This document shows positions 742-15,631 of a DNA stretch of 64,000 nucleotides, one piece after another. The notes beneath the pieces are model-generated. The model saw nothing but the letters and a program-made list of their open reading frames with translations. It did not search any database and was not told the DNA's origin. Made by a program: the position numbers and the translations under genes. Source of the DNA: Bacteroidales bacterium (GTDB taxonomy: Bacteria > Bacteroidota > Bacteroidia > Bacteroidales > JAAYJT01); NCBI GenBank assembly GCA_014860575.1, contig JACZJK010000042.1, positions 62,001 to 126,000 of the forward strand. The letters are read 5' to 3'. Positions within the stretch are counted from its first letter, which is position 1. Every line of letters begins with the position of its first letter.

Positions 742-899
742 AACCTTAAGCCCACACCGGAAAGCCACAAATTACTGATTTTTAGCGTTTATAGCCCCTA
801 ACCACTATAGGGAAAACGCTAAAATTCATCAATTTGTGAAAGTCCTCGCCACGGCGAGGATTTAGGGGTATATTGACTTTTCGGAGTAGACTTAACCTT
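742..899. mobile_element. MITE-like element, copy 1, with 6-bp target duplications
   Basis: A 146-bp element (748-893) is flanked on both sides by AACCTT (742-747 and 894-899). Its ends form imperfect 20-bp terminal inverted repeats (AAGCCCACACCGGAAAG at the left against the complement of the right end, about 15 of 20 matching). Inside is a second inverted repeat, 766-790 against 814-838, starting CACAAATT and ending AGCGTTT, with three mismatches in 25. It contains no ORF. The same structure recurs at 7719-7860. Size, inverted ends, target duplication and lack of coding capacity fit a non-autonomous miniature transposable element mobilised by a transposase outside this window. It sits just before the CNNM-type gene, so it could also affect that gene's transcription. 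Confidence 0.8.
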
Positions 900-7712: not shown

Positions 7713-7866
7713 AAAATTGAGCCCACTCTGAAAAGTCACAAATTGCTGATTTTTATCGTTTTTAACCCCTGACCCCTAAAGGGGAAACGCTAAAAATCAG
7801 CAATTTGTGGAAGTCCCATTTAGGGGATTTAGGGGCATATTGACTTTTCAGAGGGGACTCAAAATT
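7713..7866. mobile_element. MITE-like element, copy 2, with 6-bp target duplications
   Basis: A 142-bp element (7719-7860) is flanked by AAAATT at 7713-7718 and 7861-7866. The terminal inverted repeats are 20 bp with about 18 matches (GAGCCCACTCTGAAAAG at the left end). An inner inverted repeat, 7737-7761 against 7785-7809, matches 24 of 25, so the element could fold into a large cruciform or RNA hairpin. It aligns along its whole length with copy 1 at 748-893, apart from about four bases of indels. It is inserted inside a low-complexity CAAAATTCAAA tract, whose repetitive sequence weakens the target-duplication evidence for this copy alone. Confidence 0.82.
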
Positions 7867-10548: not shown

Positions 10549-13500
10549 CTACATATTCCTCCGGTACTGCCCACCCACTTCAAACAACGCCTGGGTGATC
10601 TGTCCTAACGTACAGTTCTTTGTGGCTTCCATCAAAGCATCAAAAGTATTTTGATTGCGTAGGGCAGATTTCTTGAGGTTGTCAAGTGCAATATGAGATT
10701 CCTCTTCGTTGCGAACCAGGAGGTTTCGTAGTGTTGCAATCTGGTTTTGCTTTTCCTGTTCGGTGGCACGGATCACTTCGCCTGGAATAGTAGTGGGCGA
10801 ACCGCTTGCCGAAAGGAAAGTGTTCACACCCATAATGGGTAGTTTGCCGCTGTGCTTCAGGTGTTCGTAATACAATGATTCTTCCTGGATCTTGTTGCGC
10901 TGGTACATGGTTTCCATGGCGCCGAGCACACCACCGCGTTCCGTAATACGTTCAAATTCCTGTAATACGGCTTCTTCCACTAGATTGGTAAGTTGCTCAA
11001 TGATGAAAGAACCCTGCAGCGCATTCTGGTTCCTGGCGAGGCCCAACTCATGGTTGATGATCATTTGTATTGCTACCGCCCTGCGAACCGAATCCTCGGT
11101 GGGCGTAGTGATTGCTTCGTCGAAAGCGTTGGTGTGAAGGGAGTTGCAGTTATCATAAATAGCGCCCAACGCCTGCAAGGTGGTACGGATATCGTTAAAC
11201 TCAATTTCCTGGGCATGCAGCGAACGCCCGGATGTTTGAATATGATATTTCAGTTTTTGTGAACGATCAGAGGCTTTGTAAAGATGCTTGAGTGCTTTTG
11301 CCCAGATTATTCTTGCTACACGGCCTATCACTGTATATTCGGCATCCAGGCCATTGGAGAAAAAGAAGGAGAAGTTGGGTGCAAAATCGTCTACTTTCAT
11401 TCCGCGGGAGCGGTAATATTCAAGGAAGGTGAAGCCGTTGGCCAGTGTGAACGCCAGTTGCGTGATAGGATTTGCGCCGGCTTCAGCTATATGATACCCG
11501 GAAATAGAAACCGAATAAAAATTCCGGACCTTCTTAGTGATAAAATATTCCTGGATATCGCCCATCATTCGCAGGGCAAATTCTGTTGAGAAAATACAGG
11601 TGTTCTGCGCCTGGTCTTCTTTCAAAATATCGGCCTGAACCGTTCCACGTACAGCCGATAAAGTATCAGTTTTGATCTTTTCATACACTTCAGCCGGGAG
11701 CACCTGATCGCCGGTAACGCCCAGCAGCATGAGCCCAAGTCCGTCATTACCATCGGGAAGTGGACCATTATACATCGGGCGTGTGGTTTTGCGATCCTTG
11801 AAAATCTTTTTGATTTTTTTCCCGACTTCGTCAGTCAGGCCATGTTTCCTGATATATATCTCACACTGCTGATCAATGGCCGTGTTCATAAAATAGCCAA
11901 CCAATGCCGGCGCCGGGCCATTAATTGTCATGGAAACCGAAGTAGCCGGATCAGCAAGATTGAAGCCGGAATACAGTTTCTTGGCATCATCAAGACAGCA
12001 AACCGAAACTCCGGAGTTGCCTATCTTACCGTAAATATCTGGCCTTTCACCAGGATCGCGACCATACAATGTAACCGAATCAAAAGCCGTGGAAAGACGT
12101 CGTGCGGGCATGCCTTTACTCAGGTAATGAAAACGCTTGTTTGTGCGTTCAGGAGCGCCTTCGCCGGCAAACATGCGTGTGGGGTCTTCGGCTTCGCGTT
12201 TGAATGGGAAAACACCCGCTGCATAAGGAAATTCACCGGGAACATTTTCTAGCAGCTGCCATTTCAGTAGGTCTCCCCAACCCATAAATTCAGGGAGGAC
12301 GATTTTTGGAACCTGCAGGTGCGAAAGCGTTTCGGTGTGGGTTTCAACACGAATGGTTTTATTGCGAACCGTATACTCAAAAACCGCGTCGCTATAACTT
12401 TTCTTTAATGTTTCCCAGGATTCAATGAATCGAAGGTTTTCGGGTTCAAGCTTTGCTTTGATCTTTTCGGCTTTTTGTAAAAGGGATTTCTTCAGGTTCG
12501 AATCGGTCTCATTATCCTTGCCCATGTTCTCAGCGCTCAGCATAAGTGCATAATATTCCTGTGCAAGCGTTGATTGCTCCTCACTCCATGTATTATAGTT
12601 GCGAACCGTTTCGGCAATCTCAGAAAGATAGCGCACCCGTGAAGCTGGAATAATCGGAGTCATTTTTCCCGGCTCTTCCTCTACATGTAGTTTCCTGGAG
12701 AAATCCTGCATGGTGCGGTCGTCAATCATTTTGATGAGCGCGGTATACATGCGGTTCACACCCGGATCGTTAAACCGCGAGGCAATGGTTGGATAAATTG
12801 GCAGGCTTTCAGGATCGGACTCGAAAAGGAGGCGGTTGCGGGTGTATTGCTTGCGCACATGATTGAGGGCATCGGCTGCACCGGGGCGGTCGGCTTTGTT
12901 GAGCACAACCATATCAGCGAAATCGAGCATGTCAATTTTTTCAAGTTGGGTTGGGGCGCCAAATTCAGGGGTCATTACATAAAGCGCAAGGTCAGCATGC
13001 TCGGTTATTTGCGAGTCGCTTTGGCCTATCCCGGAAGTTTCAAGCAAAACAAGGTCAAATCCTGCATTTTTGATGATGCAGAGTACATCTTTGATATGTT
13101 TTGATAGAGCAACATTGGCCTGGCGTGTTGCCAGCGAACGCATATATACGTTCGGATGATGCACAGCATTCATACGGATGCGGTCGCCAAGCAAGGCGCC
13201 ACCGGAGCGTTTGCGTGTAGGATCAACCGAAATAATGGCAAAATGTTTTTCGGGAAAGTCAACCAGCAAGCGACGGATGATTTCATCGGTCACGGATGAC
13301 TTTCCTGCGCCTCCGGTTCCTGTAATCCCAATCACCGGCGACTGGATGCGACTGCAATCTTTGGCAATAGTATCAAGTAGCGTGCGGGTTTTTTCAGGAT
13401 AATTTTCGGTTGCCGTTATAAGGCGGGCAATGGTTTGCGGATTGTTGTGGCTTATGTCTTTGGCTTCAATTGATATATCTTTGCCGAGTGGGAAATCCAA

Positions 13501-13926
13501 CTTTTCAACCATATCGTTGATCATGCCCTGCAAGCCCATGGAGCGGCCATCGTCAGGCGAATAAATGCGCTCAATGCCATAATCCTGAAGTTCTTTGATC
13601 TCGTGGGGAAGGATCACACCACCGCCACCGCCAAATATTTTGATGTGTCCCGAACCGCGCTCCTGAAGCAAATCGTACATGTATTTGAAATATTCCATGT
13701 GGCCGCCCTGATAAGATGAAAGCGCAATGCCCTGAACATCTTCCTGGATAGCGCAGTCCACAATTTCCTGCACGGAACGATCGTGCCCGAGGTGTATGAC
13801 TTCGACGCCGGTGGATTGAATAATCCGGCGCATCACATTGATGGCGGCATCGTGCCCATCAAACAGCGAAGCGGCGGTTACAACGCGGATATGATTCTTT
13901 GACTTGTACGGTTCAATATTATTCAT
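10549..13926 (-). CDS. icmF: Fused isobutyryl-CoA mutase (IcmF)
   Basis: A 1125-residue fusion. Residues 10-140 are the B12-binding domain ([10 protein letters not shown] at 22-31, the D-x-H-D-x-x motif). Residues 195-410 are a MeaB-like G-protein chaperone (P-loop GTGGAGKS 203-210, NKAD 343-346). The rest is the TIM-barrel mutase. It interconverts isobutyryl-CoA and n-butyryl-CoA using adenosylcobalamin, and the GTPase part guards the cofactor. Two positions that hold Tyr and Arg in methylmalonyl-CoA mutase here read Phe (GVFPF, residue 573) and Gln (DQAQNTC, residue 774), which favours the isobutyryl enzyme. The cofactor-making adenosyltransferase is at 44917-45486. A TAGTTTTG -7-like box lies upstream at 14054-14061. 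Confidence 0.93.
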
Positions 13927-14053
13927 GACAGGGATTTTGGATTAAACACATAAACCCGGGCTTTGTTGATTTATCTGAAATTGTGAGCCTGTATTCCAAA
14001 CTGTTTTATTAAAAAATTCCTGCTTTTTGGATGCTTCAGTGTGAGGCTCCTTG

Positions 14054-14061
14054 CAAAACTA
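14054..14061 (-). promoter_or_regulatory. Candidate -7 box for icmF
   Basis: The minus strand reads TAGTTTTG, fitting TAnnTTTG, about 127 bases before the icmF ATG. No clear -33 partner. The 120-base leader shows no cobalamin-riboswitch B12-box that I could recognise. Confidence 0.3.
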
Positions 14062-14130
14062 AAATAAATATCTCTGTTTCTGTAGAGCGGCCAGGCTTCA
14101 CAAAAATACAGAGTTTGATGCAGGTAATGG

Positions 14131-14159
14131 TTGGGGCATACTTCTAATTGCTAATTTTG
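14131..14159 (+). promoter_or_regulatory. Bacteroidetes-type promoter for nadD
   Basis: TTG (14131-14133), 18 bp, then TAATTTTG (14152-14159) fits the phylum's -33/-7 pattern. The nadD start lies about 80 bases downstream. Together with the divergent icmF box at 14054, this accounts for most of the 313-bp spacer 13927-14239. Confidence 0.5.
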
Positions 14160-14239
14160 ACTTGCTTAAACAAACGGCGGATTGCTGGCATTTCCGGCAA
14201 AATACGATTGCTGATTCATTTATAAACCTCTGACCAGTC

Positions 14240-14830
14240 ATGAATCCTGATAAAATGAAGACAGGACTTTTTTTTGGTTCGTTTAATCCGTTGCACAACG
14301 GACACCTGATCATTGCAAGGTATATGCTTGAACACGAAAGCCTTGATGAGGTCTGGTTTATCGTTTCCCCTCAAAATCCGCTAAAGGATCCAGCATCGTT
14401 GGCCAGCGCTGAACAGCGGCTTGAGATGTTGAATGTGGCTGTTGGCTCTGAGCCCAGGCTCAAAGTAAGTGATGTGGAGTTTTGGATGCCAAAACCTTCT
14501 TATACTTTTGATACGCTGGAGTTACTATCAAAAAATCATCCCGAGAGAAGCTTTTTTCTAATGATAGGTTCGGATAACCTAGAAGAGTTCCAGCTTTGGA
14601 AAAACTATGAGCAGATTTTAGAAAAATATCAACTGCTGGTTTATCCAAGGCAAAAGAAAGTTAGCAGCCCCTTTGCCAGCAGACCCAATGTTACAATTAC
14701 ACAAGCTCCGCTGATAAAGATTTCGTCCACAAAAATCCGCAAGCTTCTGAAGGAAGGTAAAGATGTGGAATCATTTATTCCCCGTGAAATCATGAAATAC
14801 ATCATGGATCATGAGTTATATGGCATTTGA
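14240..14830 (+). CDS. nadD: Nicotinate-nucleotide adenylyltransferase
   Basis: A 196-residue nucleotidyltransferase that makes deamido-NAD from nicotinate mononucleotide and ATP. The N-terminal nucleotide-binding motif GLFFGSFNPLHNGHL contains the H-x-G-H signature, and IKISSTKIRKLL near the end is the conserved S-x-T-x-x-R block. A second ATG five codons in (14255) starts right at MKTGLFFGSF and is an equally good start. It completes, with pncB and pncA 7 kb upstream, the nicotinamide-to-deamido-NAD path. The stop codon abuts that of the convergent hydrolase without a single spare base. Confidence 0.92.
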   Translation: MNPDKMKTGLFFGSFNPLHNGHLIIARYMLEHESLDEVWFIVSPQNPLKDPASLASAEQRLEMLNVAVGSEPRLKVSDVEFWMPKPSYTFDTLELLSKNHPERSFFLMIGSDNLEEFQLWKNYEQILEKYQLLVYPRQKKVSSPFASRPNVTITQAPLIKISSTKIRKLLKEGKDVESFIPREIMKYIMDHELYGI

Positions 14831-15631
14831 TCAGGCTTTATTTATCCTTTTCGTAAAATCACTTATTACTCCAAGCGTAATTTCCGGCGCTTCCAGATAA
14901 CCCATATGCCCTACTCCTTCAAGTAACAATGCTTCGGCGTGCTTAGGAAGGGCAATCTGTTCTATCACTTTATCAATTGGGATTCGGGTGTCCTGCTTGC
15001 CGGCAATGAAAAGCACTGGAATTGTCAACGTTTGAAGCAGATCACGCCATCCGTGTCTTACCTTCATCCCTTCCAATGCAGCCACCAATCCTTTACCCGA
15101 AATGCTTCCCGCCTGATTTGTAAGCACTTCTATTTCACTGGCCAGGCGCTCACGGTTGGCAGGGGCAAATAAATCGGGAATAAACTGGTTGATAAAGCCT
15201 GAGCGGTCTTGTCGTACGATCTCAATGGTGCGATCGCGGTTGTGGCGGGCTTCTTCATTATCGGCATCCGCCTGCGAATGGAAAAGAACCAATCCTTTCA
15301 GAAATTCAGGATAAAGATGGGCAAAAGCCAGCGCCACATAACCACCCATGCTGTGTCCGACCATCACACATTGCTGAATCCTGCAAAAAGAAAGCACTGC
15401 ATGAACTACCTCTGTCATAAATTCCATGCTATGCACAGCTTCGAAATTCGCGGAGCGGCCATGCCCGGGCAAATCCACGCAAATCACCCGGAAAGATTTT
15501 GAAAGTTCTTCTGAAAAGGGTTTCCAGATTGCAAGCGATTCAGTGAATCCATGCAGCAACACCAGCACAGGCCCTTCGCCTGTATCGGTGTAATGTACGT
15601 TCTGTGAACGAAATTCAATGTATTGGCTCAT
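14831..15631 (-). CDS. Alpha/beta hydrolase
   Basis: A 266-residue soluble alpha/beta-hydrolase. Oxyanion segment LLHGFTES (26-33), nucleophile S94 in GHSMGG, acid D214 in GKQDTRIP and base H242 in GVGHMGY complete the catalytic triad. The cap region (about 120-200) gives no clear substrate. Relatives include esterases, MenH-like and peroxidase-like members. It is convergent with nadD, their stop codons directly adjacent. Its own upstream region is a low-complexity TTCAAA-type tract with no obvious promoter. Confidence 0.82.
   Translation of the reverse strand: MSQYIEFRSQNVHYTDTGEGPVLVLLHGFTESLAIWKPFSEELSKSFRVICVDLPGHGRSANFEAVHSMEFMTEVVHAVLSFCRIQQCVMVGHSMGGYVALAFAHLYPEFLKGLVLFHSQADADNEEARHNRDRTIEIVRQDRSGFINQFIPDLFAPANRERLASEIEVLTNQAGSISGKGLVAALEGMKVRHGWRDLLQTLTIPVLFIAGKQDTRIPIDKVIEQIALPKHAEALLLEGVGHMGYLEAPEITLGVISDFTKRINKA

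What the first reader, a model, noticed from the sequence alone, without database searches (positions are those of the whole stretch)
742..899. MITE family, copy 1: double inverted repeat with a perfect 6-bp target duplication
A 146-bp non-coding element with 20-bp terminal inverted repeats, a nested 25-bp inner inverted repeat and flanking AACCTT on both sides. Copy 2 at 7719-7860 shares the whole architecture, yet has a different target (AAAATT), which defines the ends precisely. Two copies in 7 kb suggest many in the genome. The nested palindromes let the transcript fold as one long hairpin, and copy 1 sits in a gene's upstream region, so it may affect expression as well as move. I cannot assign it to a known family.
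Basis: seen in the sequence. Interest (0 to 1): 0.75.

Follow-up and report, generated by a model that had tools for sequence, protein, structure and literature searches.

The report
Bacteroidales MITE mobilised by IS1182-like transposase
This is a real short hitch-hiking DNA element, with at least 38 relatives in its genome, whose ends and 6-base target mark match a family of full-length jumping genes found in related bacteria, so it is an ordinary kind of element whose unusual hairpin interior shares a sequence with repeats around a nuclease gene.

Summary
Copy 1 (748-893) and copy 2 (7719-7860) are flanked by perfect 6-bp duplications, AACCTT and AAAATT. The genome holds at least 38 copies. 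Among 40 TIR pairs, 21 have perfect 6-bp duplications, none has a perfect 5- or 8-bp one, and 20 of the 21 fit AANNTT. The end GAGTCCACTCCGAAAAGTC occurs in 88 of 393 genomes of the order. It also bounds 1.8-2.0 kb insertion sequences encoding a DUF772/IS1182-like DDE transposase: 51 of 61 transposase loci have it on both sides (reversed-pattern control 0), 18 with perfect 6-bp duplications. MITE and IS share only their ends. No homologue was found in the window's own genome (95% complete), so its copies may now be stranded. The interior is a covarying hairpin carrying a 26-bp palindromic module identical to the repeat unit around the genome's only DUF559 nuclease gene. In this order 27 of 30 DUF559 loci sit beside pyrimidine/purine palindromes (control loci 0/113 and 3/78); I found no publication on this. 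Verdict: a new MITE family of a known kind, plus a possibly new DUF559-palindrome association.

The parts
742..747 (.). left target site duplication of copy 1, AACCTT
   Evidence: read directly; 6-bp length supported over 40 pairs
748..893 (+). MITE copy 1, 146 bp
748..767 (+). left terminal inverted repeat of copy 1 (AAGCCCACACCGGAAAGCCA; family GAGTCCACTCCGAAAAGTCA)
   Evidence: same type as the IS ends
766..790 (+). left arm of the inner inverted repeat, copy 1
795..812 (+). tip of the inner hairpin, copy 1 (degenerate form of CCCCTGACCCCTAAAGGGG)
814..838 (+). right arm of the inner inverted repeat, copy 1
843..860 (+). second hairpin, copy 1 (TCCTCGCCACGGCGAGGA, in place of the family's TCCCCTTTAGGGGA)
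874..893 (-). right terminal inverted repeat of copy 1
894..899 (.). right target site duplication of copy 1, AACCTT
7713..7718 (.). left target site duplication of copy 2, AAAATT
7719..7860 (+). MITE copy 2, 142 bp
7719..7738 (+). left terminal inverted repeat of copy 2
7737..7761 (+). left arm of the inner inverted repeat, copy 2
7766..7784 (+). palindromic tip of the inner hairpin, CCCCTGACCCCTAAAGGGG
7785..7809 (+). right arm of the inner inverted repeat, copy 2
7812..7837 (+). second palindromic module AAGTCCCATTTAGGGGATTTAGGGGC; its family consensus (AAGTCCCCTTTAGGGGATTTAGGGGC) is identical to the repeat unit around the genome's DUF559 gene
7841..7860 (-). right terminal inverted repeat of copy 2
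7861..7866 (.). right target site duplication of copy 2, AAAATT

Best explanation
The element is a non-autonomous MITE mobilised in trans by a DDE transposase of an IS1182-like group (DUF772 domain). The transposase recognises the terminal repeat GAGTCCACTCCGAAAAGTC at both ends and inserts the element at AT-rich AANNTT sites through a 6-bp staggered cut, giving the 6-bp duplication. Shown: shared ends, shared duplication length, an invariant D-D-E triad in the transposase, and many copies. Inferred: the transposition reaction itself, and that the partner IS was present in an ancestor or in unassembled DNA, because no homologue was found in the assembly. The interior is not IS-derived. It is a long hairpin with two inverted palindromic modules, one of them also found in an array around the genome's DUF559 gene; this probably reflects capture of a local palindromic repeat. 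The covarying arms show that palindromy is maintained, by selection or by arm-to-arm copying.
For: At least 38 copies. 21/40 perfect 6-bp duplications, 20/21 AANNTT, none at 5 or 8 bp. TIR in 88/393 genomes of the order, 237 sites in one genome, reversed-pattern control near zero. Full IS with the identical 19-bp end and an AAGATT duplication, 1923 bp, in G230, whose contig is Seramator thermalis NZ_RXHS01000008.1. 51/61 transposase loci carry the end on both sides (control 0), 18 with perfect 6-bp duplications. The single-contig genome G334 has three transposase places with identical match scores; the two IS copies examined have duplications AAAGAT and AATATT. Transposase: DUF772 above cut-off, best NCBIfam model IS1182, invariant D160, D371, E487. 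MITE and IS share only the ends.
Against: No homologue of the transposase was found in the own genome. The IS is rarer than the TIR in the order (27 genomes with any match, about 13 close, against 88). NCBIfam's IS1182 score (94.6) is below its cut-off (270), so strict IS1182 membership is not established. No empty site was shown, and no mobilisation was tested.
Confidence: 0.92

Rival explanations
1. It is a REPIN-like element (inverted REP pair) spread by a RAYT/Y1 transposase, and the outer repeat is incidental.
For: The interior has two inverted palindromic modules, and the genome has one Y1_Tnp gene.
Against: The Y1 gene has a stop codon and is surrounded by a different palindrome, GGCGCGTAGCGCC. 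The duplications and the terminal repeats match a DDE transposase, not Y1 chemistry.
Confidence: 0.03
2. It is a selected, fixed regulatory or structural RNA/DNA element (such as a bidirectional terminator) rather than a mobile element.
For: Strong folding (z -6 to -10). 14 complementary double changes in the inner arms against 2.0 expected by re-pairing, maximum 9 in 2000. Most examined sites are not inside long open frames.
Against: Copies have their own 6-bp duplications and different flanks; nothing significant in Rfam; a 45-bp remnant still has its duplication (L058). Structure can coexist with mobility, so this is a possible secondary role only.
Confidence: 0.05
3. The interior palindromes are themselves spread by the DUF559 nuclease, and the MITE is a chimera of two mobile systems. 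This is an addition to the best explanation rather than an alternative to it.
For: The 26-bp module is identical in the MITE and in the array around the only DUF559 gene. 27/30 DUF559 loci lie beside pyrimidine/purine palindromes, controls 0/113 and 3/78. Hairpin tips are exchanged as blocks between copies.
Against: Association only; in this genome most copies of the module are inside MITEs and were presumably moved with them; MITE loci fetched from other genomes with the same ends carried no such palindromes (L071-L130).
Confidence: 0.3

Closest known systems
IS1182 family insertion sequences (ISfinder; NCBIfam NF033551)
   Same: Single-ORF DDE transposase with DUF772; best curated model; D-D-E triad; terminal inverted repeats.
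   Different: Scores 94.6 against a cut-off of 270. Duplication is 6 bp here; ISPse1, an IS1182 member, has 4 bp and is 1653 bp with 16-bp repeats (PMC3281130).
Porphyromonas gingivalis MITEs (BrickBuilt, MITEPgRS, MITE239; PMC4596501)
   Same: Short non-coding Bacteroidales elements that share only terminal repeats with resident IS.
   Different: Those repeats match IS5-family elements, with 4-bp duplications reported; ends and interiors differ from those here.
REPIN/RAYT systems
   Same: Inverted palindromic modules in intergenic DNA.
   Different: No RAYT link: the genome's Y1 gene is broken and has other palindromes; this element has DDE-type ends and duplications.

Membership tests
MITE (non-autonomous DDE element) | 50-1000 bp, no transposase, terminal inverted repeats | tested here: met
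   142-179 bp, TIR about 19 bp, no transposase inside
MITE (non-autonomous DDE element) | target site duplication of fixed length | tested here: met
   21/40 perfect at 6 bp, none at 5 or 8
MITE (non-autonomous DDE element) | ends shared with an autonomous IS having the same duplication length | tested here: met
   51/61 transposase loci bounded by the same ends; 18 with perfect 6-bp duplications
MITE (non-autonomous DDE element) | mobility shown by empty sites or assay | tested here: inconclusive
   no close counterpart of the neighbouring gene in the genus; no assay possible
IS1182 family (for the partner IS) | NCBIfam NF033551 curated cut-off | tested here: not met
   94.6 bits against 270, though it is the best model and covers residues 22-528
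IS1182 family (for the partner IS) | DUF772 domain and DDE triad | tested here: met
   PF05598 35.3 bits against 23.1; invariant D160, D371, E487
REPIN/RAYT | associated RAYT gene flanked by the same palindrome | tested here: not met
   Y1 gene flanked by GGCGCGTAGCGCC instead

The most novel reading that the evidence does not exclude
In Bacteroidales, small DUF559 (Vsr-like, PD-(D/E)XK type) nuclease genes are the dedicated partners of a class of pyrimidine-loop-purine palindromic repeats, as RAYTs are of REPs. The MITE interior would be such a repeat captured between IS1182-like ends, giving a chimeric element that two different systems can copy or rewrite.
Probability: 0.35. Interest if true: 0.75.

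Novelty: new member of a known kind. Interest (0 to 1): 0.45.

Why it matters
It gives an unassigned repeat a transposase, an exact end sequence and a target rule (AANNTT), which lets MITEs be annotated across an order where the end occurs in about a fifth of sampled genomes. It shows the same ends carrying many unrelated interiors, and a genome with many MITEs but no detected transposase. The hairpin interior led to an association between DUF559 nucleases and palindromic repeats that, if functional, would be a repeat-spreading system not based on RAYTs.

Tried and rejected
Generic DDE_Tnp_1 (PF01609) search in five genomes: no match was bounded by these ends. REPIN/RAYT: rejected on the flanks of the Y1 gene. 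MITE as an internal-deletion derivative of the IS: interiors share nothing beyond the ends. Candidate 1.0, 1.8 and 2.2 kb 'IS' in G297 from TIR positions: turned out to be pairs of separate MITEs. Class-A core pattern in named genomes: no match. Relatives on plasmids: only 22-33% identical. Rfam: one sub-threshold chance match. Empty site in the genus: no close counterpart of the neighbouring gene. One family scan failed on wrong coordinates and was not needed.

Full report
Observation. The two copies are as described. Copy 1 is 748-893 with AACCTT on both sides; copy 2 is 7719-7860 with AAAATT on both sides. The genome (4.41 Mb, 66 contigs) has at least 38 places matching copy 1, plus degenerate ones found through the terminal repeat or the palindrome. 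Consensus, compiled by eye: GAGTCCACTCCGAAAAGTCACAAATTGCTGATTTTTATCGTTTTTAGCCCCTGACCCCTAAAGGGGAAACGCTAAAAATCAGCAATTTGTGGAAGTCCCCTTTAGGGGATTTAGGGGCAGATTGACTTTTCGGAGTGGACTC.

Ends and target. Of 40 TIR pairs in the own genome, 21 have a perfect 6-bp duplication, one a perfect 7-bp one, and none a perfect one of 3-5 or 8-10 bp. Random re-pairing of flanks gives a mean of 1.6 and a maximum of 6 in 2000. Nearly all of the 21 duplications fit AANNTT: each of the four outer positions agrees in 20 of 21. A 45-bp remnant at L058, little more than the two terminal repeats, still has its duplication GATATT.

Distribution of the ends. The 19-bp end with up to 2 mismatches is in 88 of 393 genomes of the order, with up to 237 sites in one genome and near-zero matches to the reversed pattern. 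Interiors differ widely, also within the own genome (L051, L052, L054, L055). Genome G015 of another family has a relative with the same nested design but other ends, from about AGGCCGGTCTAAAAAGCC to GAGTTCAGTCTAAAAAGCC. L094 in genome G192 has the same design with the same ends.

Partner. A search with the generic DDE_Tnp_1 family gave nothing bounded by these ends. Reading inward from ends that lack a near partner gave ORFs starting MFK.. about 150 bp inside. One full IS, 1923 bp in G230, has the identical 19-bp end and AAGATT on both sides; its named contig is Seramator thermalis SYSU GA16112. The protein has DUF772 above cut-off. IS1182 is its best NCBIfam model but is below cut-off. Aligned homologues (33-44% identical) keep D160, D371 and E487. 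Of 61 transposase loci in named genomes, 56 have the end on the left within 4 mismatches in 16, 55 on the right and 51 on both sides; the reversed pattern gives 0. Eighteen have perfect 6-bp duplications. MITE consensus and IS share only these ends. In the order sample 27 of 393 genomes have any match to the protein, about 13 close; the own genome has none.

Interior. The element folds strongly on either strand (z -6.1 to -9.9). In 35 copies the inner arms show 14 complementary double changes, against a mean of 2.0 and a maximum of 9 in 2000 re-pairings. The copies are related, so these are not all independent events. The palindromy is maintained; selection and arm-to-arm copying cannot be told apart here. 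Hairpin tips are exchanged as blocks: CCCCTAAAGGGG or TCCGCCGCGGCGGA in the first, TCCCCTTTAGGGGA or TCCTCGCCACGGCGAGGA or a longer insert in the second.

Origin of the palindrome. CCCCTNAAGGGGA occurs at 63 listed sites in the genome; most are inside MITEs, and 14 lie on contig C49 at 13369-15134. There the unit AAGTCCCCTTTAGGGGATTTAGGGGC is repeated in an array that encloses the genome's only DUF559 gene, C49:14284-14592. Two more copies stand at L201. Across the order 27 of 30 DUF559 loci have pure pyrimidine-loop-purine palindromes within 420 bp of the matched domain (2.6/kb, against 0.4/kb further out). Control loci from transposase and TIR searches have them in 0 of 113 and 3 of 78, the latter all purine-first. 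The control sets are not composition-matched, and related loci are not independent. Ten of 11 genomes with at least 20 CCCCTN2-4AGGGG sites and at least twice the reversed control carry DUF559, against 59 of 149 overall (Fisher p 4e-4, with a threshold chosen after seeing the counts). Three literature searches found no paper on this; the library holds only open-licence papers. I treat it as a lead, not as part of the MITE's assignment.

Context. Copy 1 lies between divergent arginine deiminase and CNNM/CBS genes; copy 2 between nicotinate phosphoribosyltransferase and an acetate-kinase-family gene on the same strand. Of 20 sites rejoined in a script, 19 have no open frame longer than 106 aa across them (the exception, L032, has 164 aa), as expected for intergenic insertion. 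An empty site could not be shown in the genus.

Conclusion. A MITE family of an IS1182-like transposase group: a known kind of element, newly assigned. The surprising part is the DUF559-associated palindrome in its interior.

Noticed in passing
G000:C49:13369-15134 (L200), and L204-L233: DUF559 nuclease genes in this order lie among pyrimidine-loop-purine palindromes in 27 of 30 loci (controls 0/113 and 3/78); the own genome's copy sits inside a 36-bp and about 117/155-bp repeat array built of the same palindrome as the MITE interior.
   Followed up: partly
L199 (G000:C11:110372-110620): A single Y1_Tnp (RAYT-like) gene with an in-frame TGA, surrounded by many GGCGCGTAGCGCC palindromes, a separate REP family.
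   Followed up: partly
L051, L052, L054, L055 (own genome): Elements with the same ends but other interiors, including pieces resembling TTGTCATCCTGA..GATCCGCCGCGGCGGA and ACATAGACCACATAG repeats.
   Followed up: partly
L061-L070 (genome G015): A second MITE group with the same nested hairpin design but different ends and with the palindrome variant of its own genome (CCCCTTCAGGGG), which also flanks a DUF559 gene there (L227).
   Followed up: partly
L036, L030, L032, L034, L037, L040, L041: An insert of about 35-40 bp (GAACTTAGCGAAGCGATCTCACGAACGAAGTGAGTAATTT) sits at the same place in the second hairpin of several MITE copies.
   Followed up: no
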